Part shown: piece by piece, positions 4,951-51,377 of the stretch
Position numbering within the stretch: the stretch's first letter is position 1
Layout of the letters: each line of letters opens with the position of its first letter
Assembly (NCBI GenBank): GCA_020847375.1
Contig: JADLCB010000026.1
Coordinates: 1-64,000, forward strand
DNA length: 64,000 bases
Origin: Phycisphaerales bacterium
Lineage (GTDB): Bacteria; Planctomycetota; Phycisphaerae; Tepidisphaerales; Tepidisphaeraceae
Direction: 5' to 3'
Program-made: the position numbers and the translations under genes
The notes under the pieces: model-generated
The model's database searches: none
The model's input: the letters and a program-made list of their open reading frames with translations, nothing else
What the model was told of the DNA's origin: nothing

Positions 4951-5907
4951 TTACTGAACCTCCGGCACGGGCGGCTGGGTCGAAGCGCTGCTCTTATCGC
5001 TGAGGGTGTTGATGTACCAGATGATGGCGTTTAATTCATGGTCTTTATCCTGAGGGGTGCTTTTAAGCTGATCGCCGTAGACCGAAGGCATGACGCCGGT
5101 AGGATAACCCTCAAGATGAATGCTCGAAGGCTTTAGGATCACATTTTTAATGTAGGCGTAGTCAGCCGTTCTGGTTGAACCATCGGCCATTTTCTGGGGA
5201 TATCCCGCCAGATTTTTCCACGTTGGGCCAATTGACTTGGTACCGTCGATGGAATGACAGGCAGTACAACCAAGGCTGGAGGCAAGTTTTTCGCCCTGCT
5301 CACTCATCGGCAACGCCAGCAGAGCCGGATCGATCCCATCTTCCTCAGCCATCTCATGAGTATCATCGGTCTGGCTGTCAGCCTGATGCGACATCTCCAT
5401 GCCGGACATATCCATCGGTACGGATTTTGGTGAAGAGCCAAAGCCGCCGGCAGCGCCGACGTTCATACCAATGACCAACACCGCTATTACCCACCCTTGC
5501 CCGCGCACGTAGGCTTCGGCAGAAAAAACTGCAATCAGGCTTAACAACGCGATGCCGATATGATCCAGCATGTGGATTACCGGCCGATTCATCATATAGA
5601 TGTAAAGAGTAGGCCACATCAACAGCAAGCTCAGCGCCGGGGCGAGGGTGGCTGGTATTGCCCACAAGGCGCTCTCACGATTGCTCGCGGATAAAAGCCA
5701 TTTAGCCAATGCCAGGGCTAAAAGGCTGGTACCGATGACCATGCCCGCGTGGAGCATATGATGCTCAGGGATGGTGGTAATCCTCGGCGAGAAGGCAATC
5801 ACCGTAATACCGTAGATGGTGATGAGCAAACCCAGAATACCCAGGATTGTCCATATCCACCTGCCGCAGTTGCAGCAGTTTTCACAAGATTGGTTTTGAT
5901 TATTCAT
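4951..5907 (-). CDS. Membrane protein fused to a COX2-type cytochrome c domain (third subunit of the heme-copper operon)
   Basis: In order: a Cys-rich N-terminus (CENCCNCG, residues 8-15), about four or five membrane helices with His residues (HHMLHAG near 49-55, HMLDH near 112-116), a Met/His-rich stretch (VPMDMSGMEMSH, 163-174) and a cytochrome c domain with heme site CTACH (214-218) and a probable axial Met in GVMP. The heme domain resembles the one usually fused to caa3-type subunit II. Here it sits on a separate membrane protein instead. The gene overlaps the catalytic subunit gene by 4 bases (ATGA), so they are co-translated. It probably passes electrons to CuA. The Met-rich stretch may bind copper. 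The membrane part slightly recalls CtaG, which is uncertain. Confidence 0.8.
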   Translation of the reverse strand: MNNQNQSCENCCNCGRWIWTILGILGLLITIYGITVIAFSPRITTIPEHHMLHAGMVIGTSLLALALAKWLLSASNRESALWAIPATLAPALSLLLMWPTLYIYMMNRPVIHMLDHIGIALLSLIAVFSAEAYVRGQGWVIAVLVIGMNVGAAGGFGSSPKSVPMDMSGMEMSHQADSQTDDTHEMAEEDGIDPALLALPMSEQGEKLASSLGCTACHSIDGTKSIGPTWKNLAGYPQKMADGSTRTADYAYIKNVILKPSSIHLEGYPTGVMPSVYGDQLKSTPQDKDHELNAIIWYINTLSDKSSASTQPPVPEVQ

Positions 5908-7409
5908 TGGGATCGGCCTGTTACGGGTTCGGGCCAGACGGGTAAATCGGCCTGGCGATTTCTTCGTAATGACACACCTTCGAAAAACGCAAGAATAAAG
6001 CCAATGATCATTATGGTGGCACCAATCGTACCAATCTGAGCCGTCAGCGGGCCTGCGCCGGGTTCAACAGCATAGCGACGGGGCACACCCAGCGCACCGG
6101 CTACATAGAACCCCAACAGGAATGTCGTCATGCCACCATAAATCAGCAGACCCAACAACCAGCGTATACTGGCCGACGTTACCCGGCTGCTGCGCGATTC
6201 CAAAAGTAGAAACACCCATCCCAGAACAAACAACAAGCACCCGCCCAATAAGTAAGTGTGGAAGTGAGCTGGAACCCACAAGGTATTATGCAAGTGCACG
6301 TTGAAGGCGATGCTGGCATCGATTTCTGCACCAATGCCGCCCACGACCCAGCCAATGATGCCGCTATACAGGAAGATGGCGCCCAAAGACCAGCGAATGC
6401 GCGACCGCCAGACCAGCATCAAAGCACCGGCAACGGTGACTGCGGTCACCGGCAGGGCAGACAGATATGAAGAGAGCTGGCCCGCGTAAGAAAGAATATT
6501 GGCCTGGGCAAAATCCATGTACAAGTGGTGGAAATAGTTGGTAAGCGTCAGGATGGTTGAACACCACCAGCCAATCACCAGAATTATGGAAGTGTGGTAT
6601 TGGCGCTTGGTCGCATAAGGCAGGGCTACGTAAATCACGCCTGCCAGCATGTAAATGACCAGGTTCACCATGGTATGAGCGAAAAAATAGATCAGATTTT
6701 TGGCCCAGAGGTTGTCGATCAACACCTTGGGATCAATCCAGTGGATAACCAGGGAAGTGACCACCAGCATGGCTGCCACGCCGCAGATTAAACCATCAAG
6801 ACCAGCTAAAAATGCTGCAAAAGCTTCCGGGGGAGGCGGTGCTTTCCCCGCTTCCTTAAATTTCTTGTTGGACCAGACATAATCCCAGCCAATAGCGCCG
6901 CGCAAACCACCAAAGGCCCGCATGCAGCCGCCAAGCATCTGCATACACCAGATCATCCAACCGATATTAACGAACACCAAGCCCAGCAAAAATACGCCCG
7001 TTGCCCACGATGGCCAGCTGCCCTTAAATGGCAATGGCATTAACACGGTGTACAAGCCTGCGTACTTACCGATCAAGGTGGAGACCAGAACAAAAACGAC
7101 GCCGATCCAGTTGAGTAACAAAGCCGCAATGGCCAGTGACTTGTTGAGATCAATATGACGGCGGAGTAGATACCATATCGCCCCCATGCCGCAGAGGATG
7201 AACCCCACCACCATGCCGGCGCCATGCAGGGATAACAGGGCGTAGAACCAGTCTGGATTTAACGGTGGCATCCAGCCCGCCTGGGCCGTGCGCATCGCCA
7301 AACCGTCCAGCAGCATTAAGAAAATGATGATTAAACCCGACCAGATATAGGCCTTCATCACGCCACGGCCTGCGCCAGCGGGTTGGTTGGTTGCTGAAGG
7401 AGTATTCAT
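5904..7409 (-). CDS. Heme-copper oxidoreductase catalytic subunit I, B-family-like, lacking the cross-linked Tyr (candidate NO reductase)
   Basis: The 501-residue protein has about 12 or more membrane helices. Metal ligands are all present: H62 (LHGAGMV) and H384 for the low-spin heme, H245, H294 and H295 for CuB, H382 for the high-spin heme (HNTLWVPAHFH). The helix that in oxygen reductases reads HPxVY reads H245-T-M-V-N249, so the Tyr that is cross-linked to His is Asn and the Pro is also lost. The alignment with ba3-type oxidase around this point is unambiguous (FFAHTMVN...VIYVALP against WTGHPIVY...IIYTILP). Loss of this Tyr is known in NO reductases derived from oxygen reductases. So NO reduction is my preferred role; an unusual oxidase is possible. 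It overlaps both neighbours by 4 bases. Confidence 0.85.
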   Translation of the reverse strand: MNTPSATNQPAGAGRGVMKAYIWSGLIIIFLMLLDGLAMRTAQAGWMPPLNPDWFYALLSLHGAGMVVGFILCGMGAIWYLLRRHIDLNKSLAIAALLLNWIGVVFVLVSTLIGKYAGLYTVLMPLPFKGSWPSWATGVFLLGLVFVNIGWMIWCMQMLGGCMRAFGGLRGAIGWDYVWSNKKFKEAGKAPPPPEAFAAFLAGLDGLICGVAAMLVVTSLVIHWIDPKVLIDNLWAKNLIYFFAHTMVNLVIYMLAGVIYVALPYATKRQYHTSIILVIGWWCSTILTLTNYFHHLYMDFAQANILSYAGQLSSYLSALPVTAVTVAGALMLVWRSRIRWSLGAIFLYSGIIGWVVGGIGAEIDASIAFNVHLHNTLWVPAHFHTYLLGGCLLFVLGWVFLLLESRSSRVTSASIRWLLGLLIYGGMTTFLLGFYVAGALGVPRRYAVEPGAGPLTAQIGTIGATIMIIGFILAFFEGVSLRRNRQADLPVWPEPVTGRSQ

Positions 7410-7939
7410 TTCTCGTCACCTACTGTAAATACTTTTTCCATCACATGATGGCCGACGCCACAATATTCCATGCAATGAGCCCGATACTTCCCCGGTTTTG
7501 TGAAAGTTACCGCCAGATAGTTGGTGTAGTCTGGCATGGCTTGCACCTGGGCGATTAAACCGCCCTGGGGGTCGTATAGGCCAAAGCCGTGGTTAACATC
7601 CATTGAAGTAACTTCAAAAATAATCTTCTTATTCAGCGGCAGCTGATCAGGCATTAAAAAGGCAAACTGAAACGTCTGAACCTTCACCTTCAGTGTGCCT
7701 GAAGCCATGGCCTCACTGGTGGTCATGTAGGGGAAGAACGGCACCATCAATATGAAAATCGCAATCAAACTTAAGAGCAGACCCAGGAACCACCGGCGGC
7801 GAATCGCGTATCCTGTCTTAACATACTCCTCATACTCCAGGGGTGGTTTACGGGTGGAGAGAACCACCACGAGGAAGACGGCAATCGCTATCCCCGACAG
7901 GATGGCGAACACTATCAGCAAAAGGATCGCATTGCTCAT
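7406..7939 (-). CDS. Heme-copper oxidoreductase subunit II with CuA site
   Basis: This 177-residue subunit has two N-terminal helices (about 5-27 and 49-70) and a short periplasmic cupredoxin domain. All CuA ligands are present: H117 (DVNHGF), C156, E158 and C160 (CMEYC), H164 and M167 (GVGHHVM). The aromatic segment before them reads QTFQFAF, where many oxidases have Trp residues that accept electrons from cytochrome c. No cytochrome c domain is fused here; it sits on the protein encoded at 4951-5907. It is the first gene of the operon, and its stop overlaps the subunit I start. A CuA site together with a catalytic subunit lacking the active-site Tyr recalls CuA-type NO reductases. Confidence 0.92.
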   Translation of the reverse strand: MSNAILLLIVFAILSGIAIAVFLVVVLSTRKPPLEYEEYVKTGYAIRRRWFLGLLLSLIAIFILMVPFFPYMTTSEAMASGTLKVKVQTFQFAFLMPDQLPLNKKIIFEVTSMDVNHGFGLYDPQGGLIAQVQAMPDYTNYLAVTFTKPGKYRAHCMEYCGVGHHVMEKVFTVGDEK

Positions 7940-8431: not shown

Positions 8432-11400
8432 TTATTTGATCGATTTCAAGGCCTCCCGGATGCGCTGACGGGTGGGGCCGATGCCCCCGTTGGCCTCATC
8501 TTCATCGGCCACGCCCTGAAAGGTTCCGAGAATGTATTGGATGTCGTCATCGCCGATGCCGTACAGGCGGAAGTAGGCTGCGTCCAGCTCGGCGCGGAGC
8601 TGATGCCGCTGGGCCTCGTTCCACTTGACGATGCCGGGCTTGAAGCCGGCTGCCTCGGCCAGCGGGCGCATGTCATCGCTCGTGCAGGTCAAGCGCAGCA
8701 CCCGCTCGCTGATCCACATCTCAAGCGTTTGGCTATTGTCCCACGGGCATTTCTCCTTGTAGGCGTCCGGCGGGAGCGTGGGGAGCTGCTCGACGATGAA
8801 GAAGTTTAGATTGTTCCCACCGGACTTCTGTCGAATGACATAGTCGTATGCGAATGAATTCAGGTTCGCCAGCAAGCAGCATCGTGAGCGGAACGGGATC
8901 GACGCGGGAAAGACAAAGACCGGCAAAGCGTCCATATAAGCGGCGTACGGGAGCATTGCTGCGATCATTGTCCGTTGATTGGTTGCGCTGCTGATCTTCT
9001 TGAACGTGAGGTGCGCAGCCTCTGCGTTGAGGCGTTGCGTGACCTCCCCTTCGAAGACCCAATACAACGGCTGCACGGCAAATTCCGGGTTCTGGTGATC
9101 GACTAGCGAACTCCCCTCGGTCTGTTGCTGTCGTTTCCAGTTTCCCTTCTCGTGCCGTACGGACGCAGCTCGATGGTCGAACATTTGGACCATCTTGCCT
9201 TCATACAGGGGAAGATAGCTGTCCCTCCGGTGCGTAAAGATGTTTCCCTCAAGCTTCGCGTCCACCGCCCTTAACTCTTGCTCGTTTCGGAACAATTCTG
9301 AAGCAAGATCGTAGTCAAAGCACCTTGTGAACGACAATTGCCACGGGTTGCCCCCCTCCCTGCGGTTTTTATCCACCAGCACGGGGACGCGGCGATAGAT
9401 CGCCTTGGTCAGCTCGGCATCCCGCTTCGTGCGGAAGATGGGGCAGGTGCGGGTGTTCGGGTTGACGAGTTTCAAATCCTTGGCGCTAAGGGTAATTTGC
9501 CGGTCCTTCTCGGCGAGGTCTTCGATCTGGTGGGCGAAGAAGATGAACTCGGCCGATTCATGCTTCACCGCCGAACCATTCATCAGGAGGATGGAGAACT
9601 TGAAGGCGCGGTGAACGTCCGCAAAGATCCCCAGCTTGTTCTCAAAGTCATAGAGGGCGACGAGGCTTTGGCTTTCGATCACATCGGCGAAGAAGTGTTT
9701 GGTCGTGTCATCGGTGGCGATGCCGCTGGGGACGAGCAACCCCACGCGGCCGGTCGGGGCAACGAGCTTGCGCGCCAATTCGGCGAAGAGCATGTAGGTG
9801 TTCACATCCCCCCGCGCGGTGAGGGGAAAGGCTTTGCAGGCGCGGACGTGGTCGAGCGTCCGTTCGGCGGCGGCGGCGGCGGCGGTGAATCTCTTGAACA
9901 GGTCCGGGCGCTTCTTCTCGGCTTCGGCAATGAGCTTACGCCGCGTGGCGGCGTTGACTGCGCTGGCAATGTCCGGCGCGCCCAAGGCGAAGAACTCGCG
10001 CTGCTGAAGCTTCATCCGCTCCCACGGCGGGTTGCCGATGACGCAATCAAACCCCCCGCGCACCATCACCTCGGGAAACGTATCGCCCCAGTCCATCGCC
10101 TTGGGATGGATGTTCGTGTCACTGACCAGTGAATTGCCCCAGACAATATTTTTGGACAGGTCGGCCAGCGTCTTGTCCTTGCGGGCCGAGCGAATCCACA
10201 AAGCAAGCTGGGTGATCTCGACGGCTTCGCGGGAGAGGTCCACGCCGTAGAGGTTTTCATGGAGAATATAACCGGGGTACGCGGCTTCGAGGGCGGTTGC
10301 ACCCTTTTCATTCGCATCGATGCGAAGCAGGCGCACGAGGTCGCCGTAGGCATCGTCGAGGCGCTGGTAGGCAGCGATGAGGAAGGCGCCGCTTCCGCAG
10401 GCGGGATCGATGATTTTCAGCGCCCGCAGGGCGGCGAGCTTCTCATCCACCGTTTTCAGCGGATCAACCCGCCGGGCGATCAGGTCTCCGACGGTCTGGT
10501 TGACGATCAGTTCGGTGAAGTCCGCCGGGGTGTAGTAGATGCCAAAGCGCTTGCGCAAGGCGCTTTTGGGCATTTCGGGCTGGCCATCCGAACCCGACTG
10601 CGGGCCGAAGAAACCGACGACGCGGAGTTTTTCCAGTTCGGTGATCGATTTCTCGAACAGATGGCCGAGGACTTCGACGTTGACTTCATCGCGGAAGTCG
10701 TAGTTATCGATGACGCCGAAAAAGTTCGTCCAGTCATCGGACAATTGCAGGTCGTCCACGACAGGATCGGTGGCAAACAGCCCGCCGTTGAAGGGCGGAA
10801 CGTCCATTTCGTCGTGGCCCTTGTCAATCATCCCAAAGAGTTTCTTGAAATTGTTCCAGATGGGATTGGTCGCGGCATCGAATGGGTTTTTGGTTTTGAT
10901 GGCCTTTTCGATGATGTTGCCGGGGAGCAGCCCGCGATCGGCGCAGAAGGCGATGAAGATCACGCGGTCGAGAAGCTTTTGGGCGGCGGCGATGGCGTCG
11001 TCGTAGCGTCGGTTATGATCTTCAATGAGATGGCGGATCAGGGCGGTGCGCTGGTTGGAATAGGCGTCGTAGAGATCGTCGCCGACTTCCTTCTGGCGGT
11101 CGCGGGTTTCCTTGAGCAATGCCAGAGCGCGGGCGGGTTCGACTTTGCTCTTGAGCAGACCGCCTCGCTCAAAGACATACCAGAAGCGGGCGAAGTGGTC
11201 GGGATTGAGCAGTTCGCCAAAGTGAAACTCCTCATACGCCTGCGGCGTGCGGTCGCGGTGATAAAGGCGAATCGTGCGGTAGTTGCTGACGATGCCCCAG
11301 GGACAATCGGGCAGGGCGTTGAGGTAATCCCACAACTGTTGAACCGGCGTACGGCCGTTGAACTTGTCGTGATCGAGATCGGTATTGGCGTCTTTGAGTT

Positions 11401-11797
11401 CGATGACTGCGGTGGGCTTGTCGTGGTCGGCGTCGGTGAACGCGCCCAGCGCGCCATCGGCGGTGCCGACGCCGGGGACATGGAACTGTTTCTGGCGGTG
11501 ATAGGCCGTTGGAGATTCTGCGACGGACTTGTAGCCCAGCGCCTGGCCGAAGATACGTTCGAGAAAATCGCCGTCGAGGGCGGTTTCGTTGTGATCCAGC
11601 GCGCGGGTGTCGGCGAGGTTGGCCCAATCTCTGATGATCGTATGGGCGGCGTCGCGATCGGGGCCTTGCCAGCGGGTTTCGCTTGCCTTGGCGGCCAGGA
11701 AGCGGGGAAGAAAAAGCGTGCGGTGCTTCGGCGCGGCGACGTCGCGGTACATGCCCGTTGCAACAATTCTGGCGGTTTTTCTGCTAGCGCTTGCCAT
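8432..11797 (-). CDS. Single-chain restriction-modification enzyme (type IIG / Eco57I-like)
   Basis: The 1121-residue protein has an N-terminal nuclease domain with the D...ExK pattern: D114 in GTADGALG, then VIELK with E133 and K135. A long helical connector follows. The N6-adenine methyltransferase carries motif I DPACGSGAFL (464-473) and motif IV NPPW (589-592). The C-terminal third is probably the target recognition domain. Such enzymes cut and methylate with one polypeptide and act as defence against foreign DNA. I chose ATG 11797 because the longer frame upstream has low-complexity, non-homologous sequence and covers an HsdR remnant in another frame; the ribosome binding site is weak. 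No separate specificity subunit or methylase is nearby. Confidence 0.88.
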   Translation of the reverse strand: MASASRKTARIVATGMYRDVAAPKHRTLFLPRFLAAKASETRWQGPDRDAAHTIIRDWANLADTRALDHNETALDGDFLERIFGQALGYKSVAESPTAYHRQKQFHVPGVGTADGALGAFTDADHDKPTAVIELKDANTDLDHDKFNGRTPVQQLWDYLNALPDCPWGIVSNYRTIRLYHRDRTPQAYEEFHFGELLNPDHFARFWYVFERGGLLKSKVEPARALALLKETRDRQKEVGDDLYDAYSNQRTALIRHLIEDHNRRYDDAIAAAQKLLDRVIFIAFCADRGLLPGNIIEKAIKTKNPFDAATNPIWNNFKKLFGMIDKGHDEMDVPPFNGGLFATDPVVDDLQLSDDWTNFFGVIDNYDFRDEVNVEVLGHLFEKSITELEKLRVVGFFGPQSGSDGQPEMPKSALRKRFGIYYTPADFTELIVNQTVGDLIARRVDPLKTVDEKLAALRALKIIDPACGSGAFLIAAYQRLDDAYGDLVRLLRIDANEKGATALEAAYPGYILHENLYGVDLSREAVEITQLALWIRSARKDKTLADLSKNIVWGNSLVSDTNIHPKAMDWGDTFPEVMVRGGFDCVIGNPPWERMKLQQREFFALGAPDIASAVNAATRRKLIAEAEKKRPDLFKRFTAAAAAAERTLDHVRACKAFPLTARGDVNTYMLFAELARKLVAPTGRVGLLVPSGIATDDTTKHFFADVIESQSLVALYDFENKLGIFADVHRAFKFSILLMNGSAVKHESAEFIFFAHQIEDLAEKDRQITLSAKDLKLVNPNTRTCPIFRTKRDAELTKAIYRRVPVLVDKNRREGGNPWQLSFTRCFDYDLASELFRNEQELRAVDAKLEGNIFTHRRDSYLPLYEGKMVQMFDHRAASVRHEKGNWKRQQQTEGSSLVDHQNPEFAVQPLYWVFEGEVTQRLNAEAAHLTFKKISSATNQRTMIAAMLPYAAYMDALPVFVFPASIPFRSRCCLLANLNSFAYDYVIRQKSGGNNLNFFIVEQLPTLPPDAYKEKCPWDNSQTLEMWISERVLRLTCTSDDMRPLAEAAGFKPGIVKWNEAQRHQLRAELDAAYFRLYGIGDDDIQYILGTFQGVADEDEANGGIGPTRQRIREALKSIK

Positions 11798-11939
11798 TGT
11801 TTTTGATGCCTGTGGCGTCGAGGTTCGTTGATTTGATCGTGACGCTGGCCTCAAGCTGGATATTGGCCGGTTGGCCCCTGTCCGGGACAAAACGCCAACC
11901 GGCGGCTTCCAGCAGTTTGTTGATCTTGATTCGCGCCAT
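11784..11939 (-). pseudogene. N-terminal remnant of a type I restriction HsdR subunit
   Basis: An ATG at 11939 opens a 51-residue frame, MARIKINKLLEAAGWRF then VPDRGQPANIQLEASVTI, ending in TAG at 11784. The pattern KINxxLExAGW...PANIxLE is typical of the very N-terminus of HsdR, which normally runs for about 1000 residues. Here the rest is gone. The remnant overlaps the start of the type IIG gene by 14 bases in another frame. It suggests that the present enzyme replaced, or recombined into, an earlier type I system. Confidence 0.6.
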
Positions 11940-12137
11940 CGCCTCTTTTGCTTATCTTCAGGACTCCCTTTGTGGATGAATGATACACGCAAATCCATTG
12001 TCGCCAAAGGAACGCGGCCGGTTCATCCCTTGTTGGATGCCCGGCGTTGGAATGCCATTTGAATGCCTGTGGATCAATCCGGCGATGATGGATGCCCTGA
12101 AGCGGATGACGGTGAAATGAATGCCTCTCCCGTGTGA

Positions 12138-25918: not shown

Positions 25919-26866
25919 ATGAGTTGTCCTGATGGAAGCTGTAAGGAACCGGGTAAGCGCCAACGAGCGCTGATCGCCTTCGGCTTGATGATGATCATTT
26001 TTATCGTGTTGTCCGGTTTCTCCTTCCTCAATTCACGAGGGCAGGTGGTTCCGGGCGACATTTCGTTCGGTTCGCACATGGCTGACGAGGGCAAGCATGT
26101 CTTCCAAGCCTATAACTGCATGGGTTGCCATACCATGGTCGGCAACGGCGCCTATCTGGCCCCGGATCTGACCAAGGAATACAAGGCGGCTGGCCCAGCC
26201 TGGCTGGCAGCGTTCCTGCCATCAGCCGGTACCTGGCCGACAGAAGCAGCGATCAAGGTTCAACTGCTGAACAACGATGACATCGCTGAAGATGCCGGCG
26301 TGGATAACATCGAAGACTATTACAAGAAGTATCCCGGTGCCAAAGAGCGGGTTCAGCGTCGTGTCGGAACCACCCTCATGCCCAATCTGCCCCTGAGCAG
26401 CGAAGAAGTCGGGCAGTTGATCGCCTATCTGAAATATACCTCGGCGATGAACACCGAAGGCTGGCCACCAGAAACCAAAATTCCGGATCTGAATAAACGC
26501 CTGTCACTGGCGCATCCGGTTGCCTCTGCTGCTGCAGCCGGCGCCAATCAAGCCCAGGCGGCTGAACCGGTTGACCCCATCGAACTGGGACACCAACTGG
26601 CGACGGATAACGGGTGTTTCGCCTGTCACGCAACCGACAACAAAAAGATGACCGGCCCGAGCTGGGGCAAGTTGTACGGTTCGCAGGTGAAGCTGACCAC
26701 TGGCAGCACCGTGGCCGCTGACGATGCCTACCTCACCGAATCGATTCTTCAGCCCAATGCCAAAATTGTTGACGGATATCAGACAGGTCTGATGCCCGCC
26801 TATGACAAGTTGCTGTCGAAAGACGAAGTCAAAGCCATCGTGGAATACATCCACAGCCTGGAGTAG
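25919..26866 (+). CDS. norC: Nitric oxide reductase subunit C fused to a second cytochrome c domain
   Basis: The first 190 residues are NorC: Cys-containing N-terminus (MSCPDGSC), one membrane anchor (18-36), heme site CMGCH (67-71) and the GTTLMPNLPLS region with axial Met. After an Ala-rich linker (about 200-217) a second cytochrome c domain follows, with CFACH (233-237) and axial Met in TGLMPAY. Usual NorC is about 150 residues and has one heme. The added domain resembles COX2-type cytochrome c and the heme domain at 4951-5907. It probably serves as a built-in electron donor. The gene ends 2 bases before norB. Confidence 0.93.
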   Translation: MSCPDGSCKEPGKRQRALIAFGLMMIIFIVLSGFSFLNSRGQVVPGDISFGSHMADEGKHVFQAYNCMGCHTMVGNGAYLAPDLTKEYKAAGPAWLAAFLPSAGTWPTEAAIKVQLLNNDDIAEDAGVDNIEDYYKKYPGAKERVQRRVGTTLMPNLPLSSEEVGQLIAYLKYTSAMNTEGWPPETKIPDLNKRLSLAHPVASAAAAGANQAQAAEPVDPIELGHQLATDNGCFACHATDNKKMTGPSWGKLYGSQVKLTTGSTVAADDAYLTESILQPNAKIVDGYQTGLMPAYDKLLSKDEVKAIVEYIHSLE

Positions 26867-26868
26867 CA

Positions 26869-28569
26869 GTGATACAGATTCAATACCAAACTCAACGTCT
26901 CAGTATGCGTTTTTTCATACTGATGCTGATTCTTTTCCTCGGTCAGATCGGTTTCGGTCTGCTGCTGGGGCTTCAGCACACGGATCCCACCCTGCTGGCT
27001 GGCACGTTGAACTTCAACGTCGTCCGGGCGGAGCATGTCAACCTCGGTCTGCTGTGGATTCTCTCGGGATTCATCGGGGCGATCCTGTTCGCCGGACCGA
27101 TGCTTTCCAAGCGTGAGCTGGCCTCTCCCTGGTTGATCAAGTTTCTATTTTATGCCCTGGTTGTGACTGTGGCATGGAACATCGGCACGCAGGTGCTGGC
27201 CATGACCGGTGTCGCGGGTTGGTGGGCCAATCAGCCGTGGTTGCAGGAAGGCTTGGAGTATATCGAAGCCGGTCGGGCTGCCGACGTGGTGATTCTGATC
27301 GGCTTCGCCATTCTAGCCTATGTGGTGCTGCGGACGTTCCCGCCGGTGCGTCAGTGGAATGAAATCCACTGGGGTCTGGGGATCGGGGTCGTGGCGCTGA
27401 TGGTGGTCTGGGTGTTCGGGTTGTTCTATGTCCCGCGCATCGACCTGCAGGAATACTTCCGCTGGTTCGTGGTTCACTACTGGGTGGAAGGCGTCTGGGA
27501 AGTGATTCATATCAGCCTGGTCGGTTTCCTGATCGTGGTGCTGTTCAAAGTTGATGTCAAATCGGTCGGTTATGCCGTCTTCTGGGGCGTAACGCTGGTC
27601 TGGCTGTCAGGTTTGCTGGGTAACGCCCACCACTACTTCTGGATTGGAACGCCTGAGTTCTGGCAGTTCTGGGGTTCACTGTTCAGTGCCATGGAACCCC
27701 TGCCGCTGATCTTCTGTTTCTGGCATATCTATATTGATGCGCATCAGAATCGCAAACCGTTGGAAAATGCTCCGGCTTTTTACTTCATCCTCGGTTCGGT
27801 GGTGCTGGAGCAAGTTGGTGCGGGCATCCTTGGTTTCACCATGACCTTCGCCCTGACCAACGTCTGGTCACACGGCACTTGGATTACCCCCGCCCACGGT
27901 CACCTGGCGCTGTTTGGCACCTTCGGTATGCTCGGTATCGCCGCAGCCTACTACGCGATTCCGGTGATGCGTAAAGCAACCGATTTTGACCAGCGCCTGG
28001 GTAAACTGGCGTTCTGGCTGGTCTTCACGGGTATCATGGGGGTCGCACTGGCGTTTGCCATTGGCGGTACGGTACAGATGTACTACTACCGCACGCTGGC
28101 ACTGGACTGGTTCGGTGGCGATGTGCTGCCGGCGATGAAGCTCTACCGTATCCTGGTACCGACATTCGGTTTCGTTTTCGCCGTCGGTGCCGGTATTCTG
28201 GCGTACGACCTGCTCACGCTGGGCAAGCGCAACCGCAATGCTGCCGCAGTTGAGGCACCGGTATTGAGCGCCTCTCCGGCGACCGGCTGGAGCCGCCCGA
28301 TGACTGGTTTTGAAGCAGGCATCTGGTTGATGTGGATGTGGATATTCGGCGGCATCATCACCCTGGGTATTTTGAGTTTCAACCTCTCCATCGTTCGCGT
28401 GCAGGGCGATCCGACGATTCCCTACATCATGGCGGGCGTGGGTTATCCGGGCCTGCTGCTGGTCACACTCTTGTTTGTCTGGCGTTTCCTGGCTTCGTTG
28501 GAAGCACGGGTCAAAACCGCAGGTGAGACGGAAGAACCAATACCGGATCTTTCCGTCGCCACCGCGTAA
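26869..28569 (+). CDS. norB: Nitric oxide reductase subunit B (cNOR type)
   Basis: The 566-residue catalytic subunit has all cNOR residues, each four positions before those of Pseudomonas NorB: H56 and H345 for the low-spin heme, H203, H254 and H255 with E207 for the non-heme iron, H343 for the high-spin heme, and E211 and E276 of the active site region. It reduces two NO to N2O using electrons from NorC at the cytoplasmic membrane. Compared with about 466 residues in known NorB it has a longer C-terminus with two extra predicted helices (FEAGIWLMWMWIFGGIITLG, and one near 525). No norD or norQ follows; a terminator lies 71 bases downstream. Confidence 0.95.
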   Translation: MIQIQYQTQRLSMRFFILMLILFLGQIGFGLLLGLQHTDPTLLAGTLNFNVVRAEHVNLGLLWILSGFIGAILFAGPMLSKRELASPWLIKFLFYALVVTVAWNIGTQVLAMTGVAGWWANQPWLQEGLEYIEAGRAADVVILIGFAILAYVVLRTFPPVRQWNEIHWGLGIGVVALMVVWVFGLFYVPRIDLQEYFRWFVVHYWVEGVWEVIHISLVGFLIVVLFKVDVKSVGYAVFWGVTLVWLSGLLGNAHHYFWIGTPEFWQFWGSLFSAMEPLPLIFCFWHIYIDAHQNRKPLENAPAFYFILGSVVLEQVGAGILGFTMTFALTNVWSHGTWITPAHGHLALFGTFGMLGIAAAYYAIPVMRKATDFDQRLGKLAFWLVFTGIMGVALAFAIGGTVQMYYYRTLALDWFGGDVLPAMKLYRILVPTFGFVFAVGAGILAYDLLTLGKRNRNAAAVEAPVLSASPATGWSRPMTGFEAGIWLMWMWIFGGIITLGILSFNLSIVRVQGDPTIPYIMAGVGYPGLLLVTLLFVWRFLASLEARVKTAGETEEPIPDLSVATA

Positions 28570-47648: not shown

Positions 47649-49139
47649 CTATTTTCCGATGCAGAACTGGGAAAAAATCTCCCCCAGCAGCTCATCGGGG
47701 CTGACACTGCCCAGAATCGACCCCAGCTCATTCAGCGCTTCGCGCAAACCCAGGGCAACCATTTCCGTCCCATCAGCCGCCGCCGAACCGGCCAGTTCCA
47801 GAGCATGAATCGCGGCTTGGATCGCGCGGACATGACGGGCATTGAGCGCCAGAACATCGTCAGCCAGCGTCAGACCAAATGCGCTGCTGCTGAGCTGATG
47901 ACGCAGTTGTTCCATTCCTTGTCCAGTTAGCGCACTGACACTCAGAACAGGCGTGGAGGCTGGTGCGCCAAGGGTCGCGCCGCACGGCAAAGGCCAATTG
48001 GTTGCACCGGCAACTAAATCGCCTTTGGTTAATACGATCAGATCAGGCGATTGTTCGATTGCCAATATTTGTTGAAAACCGGCTGGGATAACGGCATTTT
48101 GCCCATCGATCACCAGCACAACAACGTCGGCCTGTTTAATCGCACGCAGCGACCGGGAGCGCATATCACGCTCAATCGCTGCCTGAGGTGATCGATCAGA
48201 TGACTGGTCGGCAGCGGCTGACGGATTCATATCAACGAGCGGCGCAACCGATGAATTGTCGAAATCAATACCGGCTGCATCCAGCAAAACAACCCGACCG
48301 GCGGGCAGATCAACCTCCGCCGACAGCACATCGCGCGTGGTTCCGGCGATATCGGAAACAACGGCGCGCTCGTGGCCAGCCAGCGCATTCATCAGCGTAC
48401 TTTTGCCAGCATTGGGCTGCCCCACCAGCACGATGGTCGGTTCATGACTCAACCGTTCCAGACGAACCGAATGATCGATTAGATTTTGCAGTTCGGCGGC
48501 TGCACCAGTCAGACGTTCCAGCAGACGATCAGTGGCAATGAAGGTGACATCTTCATCGCTGAAGTCGATCCCCACTTCCAGCAAGGCTAAAGTCTGGATG
48601 ATCTGTTCCCTGATTGGTCTGAGGCGATCAGATAATTCACCCGCCAGCAACTGCCGGGCAGCGCGCCGTTGACGCTCACTGACAGCGCTGACCATCGCTG
48701 CCACCCCCTCAGCCCGGGTCAAATCAATCCTGTGATTGAAGTAGGCGCGGGCGGTAAACTCACCGGCTTCGGCCTGACGCGCACCGGCATGAATCAATCG
48801 ATCCAGCACCTGGCGCGCCAACCACGGATTACCCGGTAAATGCAGCTCGATCACTTCTTCGTCGGTATAACTGCGTGAGGCGGCAAAATGATAAAGCCAG
48901 ACACCGGGAACGCGCAAATCACCTGTTTTTGCAGCACTCTTATTTTCTGGGCCATTTTCATTTTTGGTCTCCAGCCTTATCGCCACCCGGCAGGCTGAGG
49001 AAAACTCCGCCAATGGCAGTGGATTTTCGATCATTTGCTGGACAAACCGTACAGCCTCCGGCCCGCTGAGGCGCACAATGCACCGCGCCGCCGGGCCGGG
49101 GGTGCTGGATAGCGCAACGATCGTATCGCCGGTAATCAC
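47649..49139 (-). CDS. mnmE: tRNA uridine-5-carboxymethylaminomethyl modification GTPase
   Basis: The 496-residue protein has the MnmE N-domain (MITGDTIVALSSTPGPAARC), the helical domain with GEFTARAYFNHRIDLTRAEG, an inserted G domain (P-loop GQPNAGKST, 240-248; IAGTTRD) and the C-terminal FCIGK that binds the formyl group. Two deviations are visible: G3 is DAAG (287-290) instead of DTAG, and the nucleotide-base motif is TKGD instead of NKxD. A short insertion rich in Ser and Asp follows G3. It works with MnmG on wobble uridines. Confidence 0.95.
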   Translation of the reverse strand: MITGDTIVALSSTPGPAARCIVRLSGPEAVRFVQQMIENPLPLAEFSSACRVAIRLETKNENGPENKSAAKTGDLRVPGVWLYHFAASRSYTDEEVIELHLPGNPWLARQVLDRLIHAGARQAEAGEFTARAYFNHRIDLTRAEGVAAMVSAVSERQRRAARQLLAGELSDRLRPIREQIIQTLALLEVGIDFSDEDVTFIATDRLLERLTGAAAELQNLIDHSVRLERLSHEPTIVLVGQPNAGKSTLMNALAGHERAVVSDIAGTTRDVLSAEVDLPAGRVVLLDAAGIDFDNSSVAPLVDMNPSAAADQSSDRSPQAAIERDMRSRSLRAIKQADVVVLVIDGQNAVIPAGFQQILAIEQSPDLIVLTKGDLVAGATNWPLPCGATLGAPASTPVLSVSALTGQGMEQLRHQLSSSAFGLTLADDVLALNARHVRAIQAAIHALELAGSAAADGTEMVALGLREALNELGSILGSVSPDELLGEIFSQFCIGK

Positions 49140-49354
49140 AACTGCGATTATAAACGACAGGACTGTTCTGCAAACCCAGTCGCCGCAACGCCTTTTTGCC
49201 TGATCATTTTTTTATCCGATCATAAATTCACGTTGCGCCAATGGCAGCCCGCCAGCGCACAAATTGATCATCAGTGGAGATATTCATTTAACCGGCCTAT
49301 GCTTTTGCACAAATTCACAAAGTCGTGAATGGTCTAACAGGAAAGGAACGAATC

Positions 49355-49849
49355 ATGGATACGAAAACGTTGTTGGCGATGTACGATTTTGGTCATGCGC
49401 GCTTGCTGGAGTCTTTGCAGACGATTGAAAAAAGCGGCGCTGATCCGGCGAAGGTGCTGGCGTGGCGCCCCGGCGCGGGTCGGGCGCATATCGCCTGGCA
49501 GGCGATGCACTGTGCTGCCACGCTGGATAATTACGTCAATGCCCGCCTGCATGGTGGCAAGCCCGGCGATCCCGATCTGGTGGCACGCTACGGCGGCGGA
49601 TCGACTCCGGCTGACGATCACATTCCTGATCTGGCAACCATTCGCCATGCACTGGAAAAACACGGCAAGCCGTTCCGTGACTATCTGGCCAAAGCCAATG
49701 CTTCAGAACTGAGCCAGAAAAAGATGTTTGGCAAAACCGAGCGTACTGTCGGCGAGGCGCTGGTGCTGCTGATCTGGCACGAAACGCACCATCAGGGGCA
49801 GATTCACCTGACGTGGAATCTCTACAAAGCAGCCCACGGTATCAAGTAA
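49355..49849 (+). CDS. DinB-superfamily protein
   Basis: The 164-residue protein has the four-helix DinB fold with likely metal ligands His in RAHIAWQAMHC and in WHETHHQGQIHL. The second signature HxxxH...Q is typical. Family members are metal-dependent transferases that use mycothiol, bacillithiol or glutathione; no thiol type can be told here. AAAGGA precedes ATG 49355. It is monocistronic. Confidence 0.88.
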   Translation: MDTKTLLAMYDFGHARLLESLQTIEKSGADPAKVLAWRPGAGRAHIAWQAMHCAATLDNYVNARLHGGKPGDPDLVARYGGGSTPADDHIPDLATIRHALEKHGKPFRDYLAKANASELSQKKMFGKTERTVGEALVLLIWHETHHQGQIHLTWNLYKAAHGIK

Positions 49850-49937
49850 CGCCGTAATAACGATCATGCTCAGTGGCCTTTGACGCTGAGTCCAACGAAG
49901 TGGCCCGGACTAAACGAATTGAGCGAATTAGTCCGGG

Positions 49938-51377
49938 TTATTCGTTGCCCAGAATCGTGGGCAGATGCGCTTTGACACGTTGTTCTTCGGTTTCCAGCCC
50001 CGGGGCTGCGCCGATGAACTGCTTGTCAAGCTGGCGCACCTTGCGCACCGGTGGATCAGTCAGTTGAACCAGATCGGGTGAATCAGCCCCTTCGTGGCGG
50101 CGAAGCACATGGTAGTATTGATCGCGCTGAACCGGAATCCATCCACTGTCGCGGATCAACCGGCAAATCTCGCGGTCGCTGAGTTTATACGTCGTGCCTG
50201 CAGCTGATACGACGTTTTCCTCCATCATGACCGAACCCATGTCGTTGGCCCCGAAATGCAGGGCAATCTGACCAATCTTCGGCCCCATCGTCACCCACGA
50301 GCTTTGCAGATTGGTGATGTTGTCGAAGAACAGCCGGGCAATGGCCAGCATGCGCAAATATTCATCCCCGCCAGCCATGCGCACGACCCGGCCACGCACA
50401 ATGTCCTCATGGGTCGAATCATCAAACGGGCCATGCACAGCAGGATCCCACTCTTTAGCCCGGCCCAACGGTGTGTTTTCGCGCTGGAACGGCCAGTGGA
50501 TGAATGCGGTGTAGAAACCGGCGGCAATCGGCCCATTCAGCGCTGGAGGCGCCGAAGCTGCAAAAATACCCGGACGGCGCGCTTTGATGGCTGCAATGAC
50601 GCCGGCACTATCGGCGCCGCTCAACACTGGATCGCTTTGCCCGCGCAGCGCCTGGGCATAATCCTGCATATCGCGGATCGCAGCCATGTGTTCGATCCGT
50701 TCGCGGACAAACTCAATATGCCCAATGAGCATCGTGGCGCTGGTGTTCATTCCCTCTTCATGGGCCACGCGCATCACGCGCAGCCAGTCATCACCGCTGC
50801 ACTTGCCGATACCAATACGCCGCCGGACGCGCGGCGCGAAAATTTCACCACCGCCGCCGGGAATCGTATCCAGACCGGCCGCCTTGAACCGACGGATGAT
50901 TTCGCGCACATCCATCGAAAAAAAACGTTCAAATTCGACGAATTCCGGCGGGCTGAAAGCGTGAATATGCACCGTGGGAAACTGGGCCTTGATATAGCGC
51001 AGCAGGTCTTCGTAGTAGGTGATGGGCAGATCAGCATTCATCCCCCCCTGCATCAGAATCTGCGTACCGTTAATATCGACCAACTCCTGGATTTTGGCGC
51101 GAATGGCAGCGTGATCCAGCACATAGCTGTCCGGGTCATTCGGATCACGTCGAAACGCGCAAAACGTGCAACGCGCGGTGCAGACATTGGTATAATTGAT
51201 ATTTCGGTCGATTACGAAGGTGCGGTAGTCTTCGGGATGCTTGCGCAGCGCCACCTGATTGGCCCAGTCGCCCAGATCATGCAGCGAGGCCTGATGATAC
51301 AGTTCCATCGCCTGCTGCTGGGTAAGCCGGGCTTTTGCCTGTATGACCGCATCGATATCAAACGACAGTTTGCTCAT
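49938..51377 (-). CDS. mqnC: Cyclic dehypoxanthinylfutalosine synthase (menaquinone, futalosine pathway)
   Basis: The 479-residue radical SAM enzyme has NINYTNVCTARCTFCAFRR (CxxxCxxC), IPGGGGEIFAPRVR, SATMLIGH and FGANDMGSVMMEENVVSAAG, all typical of MqnC. It converts dehypoxanthine futalosine to the cyclic form on the way to menaquinone. Typical MqnC has about 360-390 residues. The extra length comes from two inserts, one before GFYTAFIHWPFQ and one after NTPLG. Menaquinone made by this route would serve anaerobic and nitrogen-oxide respiration. Divergent from the sulfhydrylase gene. Confidence 0.95.
   Translation of the reverse strand: MSKLSFDIDAVIQAKARLTQQQAMELYHQASLHDLGDWANQVALRKHPEDYRTFVIDRNINYTNVCTARCTFCAFRRDPNDPDSYVLDHAAIRAKIQELVDINGTQILMQGGMNADLPITYYEDLLRYIKAQFPTVHIHAFSPPEFVEFERFFSMDVREIIRRFKAAGLDTIPGGGGEIFAPRVRRRIGIGKCSGDDWLRVMRVAHEEGMNTSATMLIGHIEFVRERIEHMAAIRDMQDYAQALRGQSDPVLSGADSAGVIAAIKARRPGIFAASAPPALNGPIAAGFYTAFIHWPFQRENTPLGRAKEWDPAVHGPFDDSTHEDIVRGRVVRMAGGDEYLRMLAIARLFFDNITNLQSSWVTMGPKIGQIALHFGANDMGSVMMEENVVSAAGTTYKLSDREICRLIRDSGWIPVQRDQYYHVLRRHEGADSPDLVQLTDPPVRKVRQLDKQFIGAAPGLETEEQRVKAHLPTILGNE

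What the first reader, a model, noticed from the sequence alone, without database searches (positions are those of the whole stretch)
5904..7409. Heme-copper oxidoreductase whose cross-linked active-site Tyr is replaced by Asn
All six metal-binding His residues are in place, and the helix aligns without gaps with ba3-type oxidase (H245-T-M-V-N249 against HPxVY). The Tyr that supplies an electron and proton for O-O bond cleavage is therefore Asn. Oxygen reduction by the normal mechanism would be difficult. Known CuA-type and other B-family-derived NO reductases lost the same Tyr, so this may be an NO reductase of a little-studied type. Which subgroup has Asn here I cannot say from memory.
Basis: partly seen in the sequence, partly recalled or inferred. 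Interest (0 to 1): 0.8.

Follow-up and report, generated by a model that had tools for sequence, protein, structure and literature searches.

The report
sNOR-type nitric oxide reductase, three-gene operon
A bacterial respiratory enzyme has lost the tyrosine that oxygen-consuming relatives need and carries an asparagine there, which marks it as a member of the already described but barely tested sNOR group of nitric oxide reductases; the less expected part is an uncharacterised histidine-rich membrane partner, here joined to its own cytochrome c.

Summary
The ORF (minus strand, 7409-5904, 501 aa) has all six heme/Cu histidines and Asn249 where oxygen reductases have the cross-linked Tyr. The protein belongs to a large Asn clade: all clade sequences that cover the site have Asn, the clade has 100/100 branch support against Tyr (ba3, aa3) and Gln (eNOR-like) enzymes, and it contains Ruegeria (Silicibacter) pomeroyi and Ca. 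Methylomirabilis, both with published sNOR assignments. The 12-helix subunit I and two-helix CuA subunit II match the 'type II qCuANOR' layout, not bNOR. The genome also encodes cNOR (same window), NosZ and NnrS, but no NirS and no NirK at cut-off, consistent with NO to N2O to N2. Most likely it is a cytochrome c-dependent NO reductase. No sNOR purification is reported in the papers I read, and O2 reduction has been proposed for N. europaea sNOR. The less expected part is the third gene: a five-helix protein with an invariant HHxxH...PxxY-x9-HxxxH motif, separate, fused to subunit I, or (here) fused to cytochrome c.

The parts
5904..7409 (-). Subunit I, heme-copper oxidoreductase of the sNOR clade, 501 aa, 12 long helices in the model; six heme/Cu His (H62, H245, H294, H295, H382, H384); Asn249 replaces the cross-linked Tyr
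6663..6665 (-). Codon AAC for Asn249, the residue in question
   Evidence: codon read; position follows from residue 249 of the ORF starting at 7409
7406..7939 (-). Subunit II, 177 aa, two N-terminal hydrophobic segments then a CuA cupredoxin domain with intact ligands H117, C156, E158, C160, H164, M167; overlaps subunit I by 4 bp (ATGA)
4951..5907 (-). Third subunit, 318 aa: five-helix membrane domain with HHxxH (H49, H50, H53) and PxxY-x9-HxxxH (P99, Y102, H112, H116), then a C-terminal monoheme cytochrome c domain (CTACH at 214); overlaps subunit I by 4 bp (ATGA)

Best explanation
It is a new member of the sNOR family: a CuA-containing heme-copper NO reductase. Most likely electrons pass from the cytochrome c domain of the third subunit to CuA in subunit II, then to the low-spin heme (H62/H384) and to the high-spin heme (H382)-CuB (H245/H294/H295) site, where two NO are coupled to N2O and H2O. 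Because Asn249 replaces the redox-active Tyr, the fourth electron for O-O cleavage is missing, which favours the two-electron NO reaction. Shown here: residues, subunits, clade, gene order, coexisting cNOR/NosZ/NnrS. Inferred: substrate, electron route, and that the third protein is part of the complex (supported by natural fusions). Likely role: NO detoxification or NO respiration feeding NosZ.
For: Asn at the Tyr position is the published mark of sNOR (PMC8756737 Table A4) and the published expectation for NOR function (PMC3475470). Asn clade 100/100, with Ruegeria (Silicibacter) pomeroyi, listed as sNOR, and Ca. Methylomirabilis, published sNOR. Tyr in all ba3/aa3 references, Gln in four eNOR-like ones. 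CuA ligands intact. Twelve-helix subunit I and two-TM subunit II, as in type II qCuANOR. Same genome: cNOR in the window, clade II NosZ at 794 bits against a cut-off of 625, NnrS. NosZ over cut-off in 10 of 30 genomes with the clade gene, against 4 of 95 non-carrier relatives (not phylum-matched). Third domain fused to subunit I in Actinomycetota-type loci and one Planctomycetota locus, and to cytochrome c in the window's own subclade.
Against: No purified sNOR with measured NO turnover appears in the papers read. Transcriptomics in Nitrosomonas europaea led its authors to suggest a high-affinity O2 reductase (PMC6967387). Two K-channel positions stay conserved (ba3 Y248->Y260, T312->T325), and an invariant family-specific Tyr253 lies one turn beyond Asn249, so some proton or redox role of a Tyr is not excluded. 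No NirS and no NirK at cut-off in the genome, so the NO source is external or unknown. Nitrosomonas norY and B. azotoformans bNOR themselves were not in my set.
Confidence: 0.78

Rival explanations
1. It is a high-affinity O2 reductase that works without the cross-linked Tyr, using another electron/proton donor (for example Tyr253 via Asn249, or the fused cytochrome c) at the active site.
For: sNOR of N. europaea is 2.7-10.8-fold up under O2 limitation and was proposed to be a terminal oxidase (PMC6967387). Y253, Y260 and T325 are invariant or nearly so, and a heme-copper rather than heme-iron centre is kept.
Against: The Tyr is kept in every ba3 and aa3 reference sampled that covers the site and lost in all covered clade members. 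No cbb3-like Tyr on helix VII. i+8 is too far along the helix for the known His-Tyr cross-link. The genome already has an A-type oxidase and has NosZ and cNOR.
Confidence: 0.15
2. It is a member of the bNOR/CuANOR family (B. azotoformans type I), which also has Asn.
For: Asn plus CuA subunit; bNOR is the biochemically characterised Asn enzyme (PMC3475470, PMC11388526).
Against: bNOR is described as a close ba3 homologue with 13 TMHs and a one-TMH subunit II; the window protein lies outside the ba3 branch, has 12 long helices and a two-TM subunit II. [quoted passage not shown] No bNOR sequence was in my tree.
Confidence: 0.04
3. Substrate other than NO or O2 (for example N2O, nitrite or NO dismutation), or a decayed, inactive copy.
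For: No sNOR has been purified in the papers read; three NO/N2O-metabolising enzymes in one genome look redundant.
Against: All ligands and the CuA site are intact and conserved over many phyla; intact operon with 4-bp overlaps; nothing suggests decay. NosZ already covers N2O.
Confidence: 0.03

Closest known systems
sNOR, Ca. Methylomirabilis type (Damo_0801-0802 in PMC6094997; relative here L085)
   Same: About 51% identity of subunit I, Asn at 249, six His, CuA subunit II upstream, and the five-helix His-motif protein immediately downstream
   Different: The downstream membrane protein is free-standing (149 aa) in L085, but fused to cytochrome c in the window
sNOR, norSY-senC-orf1 type (Ruegeria pomeroyi L038; gene order as described for Nitrosomonas in PMC4940428)
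   Same: Asn, six His, CuA subunit II, one clade at 100/100; 33-34% identity of subunit I
   Different: Ruegeria has SCO/SenC, orf1 and a nitrite transporter after subunit I. The window has none of these and instead the His-motif/cytochrome c protein; orf1 and the third subunit are not detectably related by hhalign
qCuANOR type II of B. azotoformans/Geobacillus (BAZO_04695-04710, PMC3475470)
   Same: Asn, 12-TMH subunit I, CuA subunit II with two TMHs, a 4-5 TMH polypeptide proposed as third subunit
bNOR (CuANOR) of B. azotoformans
   Same: Asn plus CuA subunit
   Different: ba3-like 13-TMH subunit I and one-TMH subunit II; window protein outside the ba3 branch
ba3-type oxygen reductase (T. 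thermophilus 3s8f)
   Same: Same fold (TM-score 0.76), same six ligands, Y248->Y260, T312->T325
   Different: 21% identity; Tyr237->Asn249; Y244, S309 and T315 of the K channel lost
eNOR
   Same: CuA-type NOR with the Tyr lost
   Different: Gln at the site (L145, L146, L196, L203) and a separate branch with ba3
caa3 oxidase cytochrome c domain (1w2l)
   Same: The cytochrome c domain of the third subunit is its best structural match (E=1.2e-3, 35% identity)
   Different: In caa3 the domain is on subunit II (own knowledge); here it is on a third membrane subunit. The overall model of this protein is of low confidence (pLDDT 59)

Membership tests
sNOR | Asn instead of the cross-linked Tyr | tested here: met
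   N249; PMC8756737 Table A4 gives N for sNOR
sNOR | Six heme/Cu histidines of the HCO superfamily | tested here: met
   H62, H245, H294, H295, H382, H384
sNOR | Cupredoxin subunit II encoded next to subunit I | tested here: met
   7406-7939, CuA ligands intact
sNOR | Phylogenetic grouping with published sNORs | tested here: met
   Groups with Ruegeria pomeroyi and Ca. Methylomirabilis at 100/100 against ba3, eNOR-like and aa3; Nitrosomonas norY itself not in the set
sNOR | NO reductase activity without proton pumping | not testable with these tools
   Needs enzyme assay; K-channel residues only partly kept
bNOR (CuANOR) | ba3-like 13-TMH subunit I | tested here: not met
   12 long helices, outside the ba3 branch
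eNOR | Gln at the Tyr position | tested here: not met
   Asn; eNOR-like sequences form their own branch
cNOR/qNOR | NorB-type glutamates and close relation to NorB | tested here: not met
   The window's other HCO (26869-28569) has the NorB pattern WVEGVWEV; this one does not
A/B-family oxygen reductase | Cross-linked Tyr at i+4 of the CuB His | tested here: not met
   Asn249
C-family (cbb3) oxygen reductase | Tyr on helix VII | tested here: not met
   T288 at the equivalent position, V/I/T/L in 46 relatives; by register, not by measured distance

The most novel reading that the evidence does not exclude
The Methylomirabilis-type sNORs, including this one, form a distinct lineage with a previously unnamed third membrane subunit carrying five invariant histidines (HHxxH...PxxY-x9-HxxxH) that is integral to the enzyme. 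It occurs separate, fused to subunit I, or, in the window's subclade, fused to an electron-donating cytochrome c, so that the complex carries its own donor; its histidines may bind a heme, copper or quinol, or it may be a captured CtaG-like copper-insertion protein.
Probability: 0.45. Interest if true: 0.55.

Novelty: new member of a known kind. Interest (0 to 1): 0.38.

Why it matters
Asn-type enzymes are annotated as cytochrome c oxidase (the Ruegeria and Thermomicrobium copies read 'cbb3-type cytochrome c oxidase subunit I'), so NO-reducing capacity in Planctomycetota, Verrucomicrobiota, Methylomirabilota and others is likely undercounted in surveys of N2O sources. sNOR chemistry is disputed (NO or O2), and the conserved third subunit gives a concrete handle for purifying an intact complex.

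Tried and rejected
(1) cbb3-like substitute Tyr on helix VII: rejected by register. (2) eNOR, cNOR and qNOR membership: rejected by residues and tree. (3) Third subunit as CtaG: shared spacing of HxxxH and PxxY-x9-HxxxH with T. roseum CtaG, but hhalign probability only 13% and Pfam CtaG E=0.05 in one member; left open. (4) Third subunit equals orf1 of the norSY cluster: no support. (5) An authentic bNOR reference: sampling of 199 genomes of the phylum of G105 gave ba3 oxidases with Tyr and eNOR-like sequences, no Asn-type ba3-like protein. (6) Murali et al. PNAS paper on sNOR/eNOR/gNOR/nNOR (recalled from memory): not held. (8) Structure of the third subunit: pLDDT 59, only its cytochrome c domain found a near-significant match.

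Full report
Observation. The interval 5904-7409 encodes, on the minus strand, a 501-aa heme-copper oxidoreductase subunit I. All six metal-binding histidines are present (H62, H245, H294, H295, H382, H384) and the residue four after the first CuB histidine is Asn249 instead of Tyr (codon AAC). A joint alignment with Thermus ba3 oxidase is gap-free across this helix and maps Y237 to N249. The AlphaFold model (pLDDT 87, pTM 0.90) has 12 long helices, with 233-267 a single continuous helix, and matches solved heme-copper oxidases at TM-scores of about 0.75-0.80, ba3 at 0.76.

Operon. Subunit II (7406-7939) is a cupredoxin with intact CuA ligands and two N-terminal hydrophobic segments. It overlaps subunit I by ATGA, and subunit I overlaps a third gene (4951-5907) the same way. 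The third protein has a membrane domain of five helices and a C-terminal cytochrome c domain. No regulator, SCO or transporter adjoins; the neighbours are a restriction-methylase-like gene upstream and an epimerase-like gene downstream.

Relatives. A scan of GTDB genomes with patterns that do not include the Asn column found 388 relatives. In every clade member of the joint alignment that covers the site (more than 80 rows, including the window and some duplicates of one genome) the residue is Asn and the six histidines are kept where covered; ba3 and aa3 references that cover the site all have Tyr, and four eNOR-like sequences have Gln. Maximum-likelihood trees put all Asn sequences on one side of a branch: SH-aLRT 100 in 75 rows, UFBoot/SH-aLRT 100/100 in 36 rows. 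The window protein sits with Verrucomicrobiota, Planctomycetota and Acidobacteriota sequences, inside a larger group with Trueperaceae, Eremiobacterota and Ca. Methylomirabilis. The root was placed at the midpoint, so the tree does not say from which oxidase family the clade arose. In 294 genomes drawn from the window's phylum only its own genome had a close match; within its class the close matches are in another family. The patchy pattern suggests horizontal spread (inference).

Literature. Asn at this site is the listed mark of sNOR (Betaproteobacteria, Silicibacter, Deinococcus, Geobacillus) and also of CuANOR/bNOR (PMC8756737 Table A4). Ruegeria (formerly Silicibacter, own knowledge) pomeroyi is in my tree; its locus has subunit II, subunit I, SCO, orf1 and a formate/nitrite transporter, like norSY-senC-orf1 (PMC4940428). 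Ca. Methylomirabilis oxyfera has one published sNOR (PMC6094997), and the Ca. M. oxygeniifera genome sampled here has one Asn-type enzyme. 'qCuANOR type II' is described with Asn, a 12-TMH subunit I, a two-TMH subunit II and a possible 4-5 TMH third subunit (PMC3475470), which is the layout seen here.

Does another Tyr substitute? In cbb3 enzymes the Tyr is on helix VII, six residues before the HH pair (own knowledge); here that is T288, never Tyr in 46 relatives. Y292 is Tyr in only 41 of 46. Y253 and Y260 are invariant. Y260 aligns with K-channel Y248 of ba3; Y253 is specific to this clade, one helical turn beyond Asn249, and could be a proton relay but not a cross-link partner by known geometry (inference). 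K-channel positions Y244, S309 and T315 are lost, T312 is kept as T325.

Genome context. The same genome encodes an A-type oxidase, a cNOR in this very window (25919-28569), clade II NosZ (794 bits, cut-off 625) and NnrS, but no NirS and no NirK over cut-off. NosZ over cut-off occurs in 10 of 30 genomes carrying the clade gene and in 4 of 95 non-carrier relatives of the window; these sets are not phylum-matched, and within the relatives alone the excess is 2 of 6 against 4 of 95 (Fisher P=0.04, not significant without the window's own genome, P=0.23), so this is suggestive only.

Third subunit. Homologues of its membrane domain were found in 69 loci of the set; 68 of 69 keep HHxxH...PxxY-x9-HxxxH. 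In Methylomirabilota, Eremiobacterota and Bacillota it is a separate protein downstream of subunit I (about 148 aa where the start is clear); in Solirubrobacterales/Thermoleophilia-type loci it is the C-terminus of subunit I itself; in Planctomycetota, Acidobacteriales and several Verrucomicrobiota it carries cytochrome c; in L065 subunit I, third domain and cytochrome c are one 816-aa frame; three Verrucomicrobiota loci, including the window's nearest neighbour L060, lack the cytochrome c. Such fusions argue that it is part of the enzyme. No Pfam family reaches its cut-off for the membrane domain. A CtaG-like origin is hinted at by motif spacing but not demonstrated.

Verdict. What is open is the chemistry of sNOR (NO versus O2; PMC6967387 argues for O2) and the role of the histidine-rich third subunit.

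Noticed in passing
window 4951-5907 (-); L060, L085, L101, L109, L107, L111, L065: Unnamed five-helix membrane domain with invariant HHxxH...PxxY-x9-HxxxH beside Methylomirabilis-type sNORs; found separate, fused to the C-terminus of subunit I, or fused to cytochrome c.
   Followed up: partly
window 25919-28569 (+): cNOR-type NorC-NorB pair about 18 kb from the sNOR operon; NorC carries a second, C-terminal cytochrome c domain.
   Followed up: partly
G000:C11:247995-249746 (L220): Clade II nitrous oxide reductase in the same genome, with no NirS and no NirK over cut-off: a likely NO/N2O-reducing but not nitrite-reducing organism.
   Followed up: partly
L004:1336-2976 (-) (G000:C15): 546-aa COX1-family protein (53 bits) in which I see no HH pair for CuB (GGGHVLQA... 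and TPAHYHAN present): possibly a degenerate or non-copper heme protein.
   Followed up: no
L005:1120-3003 (+) (G000:C2): NnrS with two DUF1858 domains, another sign of NO metabolism.
   Followed up: no
G099:C118, sNOR 49136-50548 and NosZ 67399-69243: In a same-class relative the sNOR operon and NosZ lie about 17 kb apart on one contig.
   Followed up: no
window 8432-12007 (-): 1191-aa restriction-modification-like protein (Alw26/BREX PglX-type adenine methyltransferase similarity, below cut-offs) directly upstream of the operon.
   Followed up: no
L012/L043 (G018:C317): A relative in the window's own family carries a different sNOR (36% identical, CuA subunit upstream), truncated by the contig end.
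   Followed up: no
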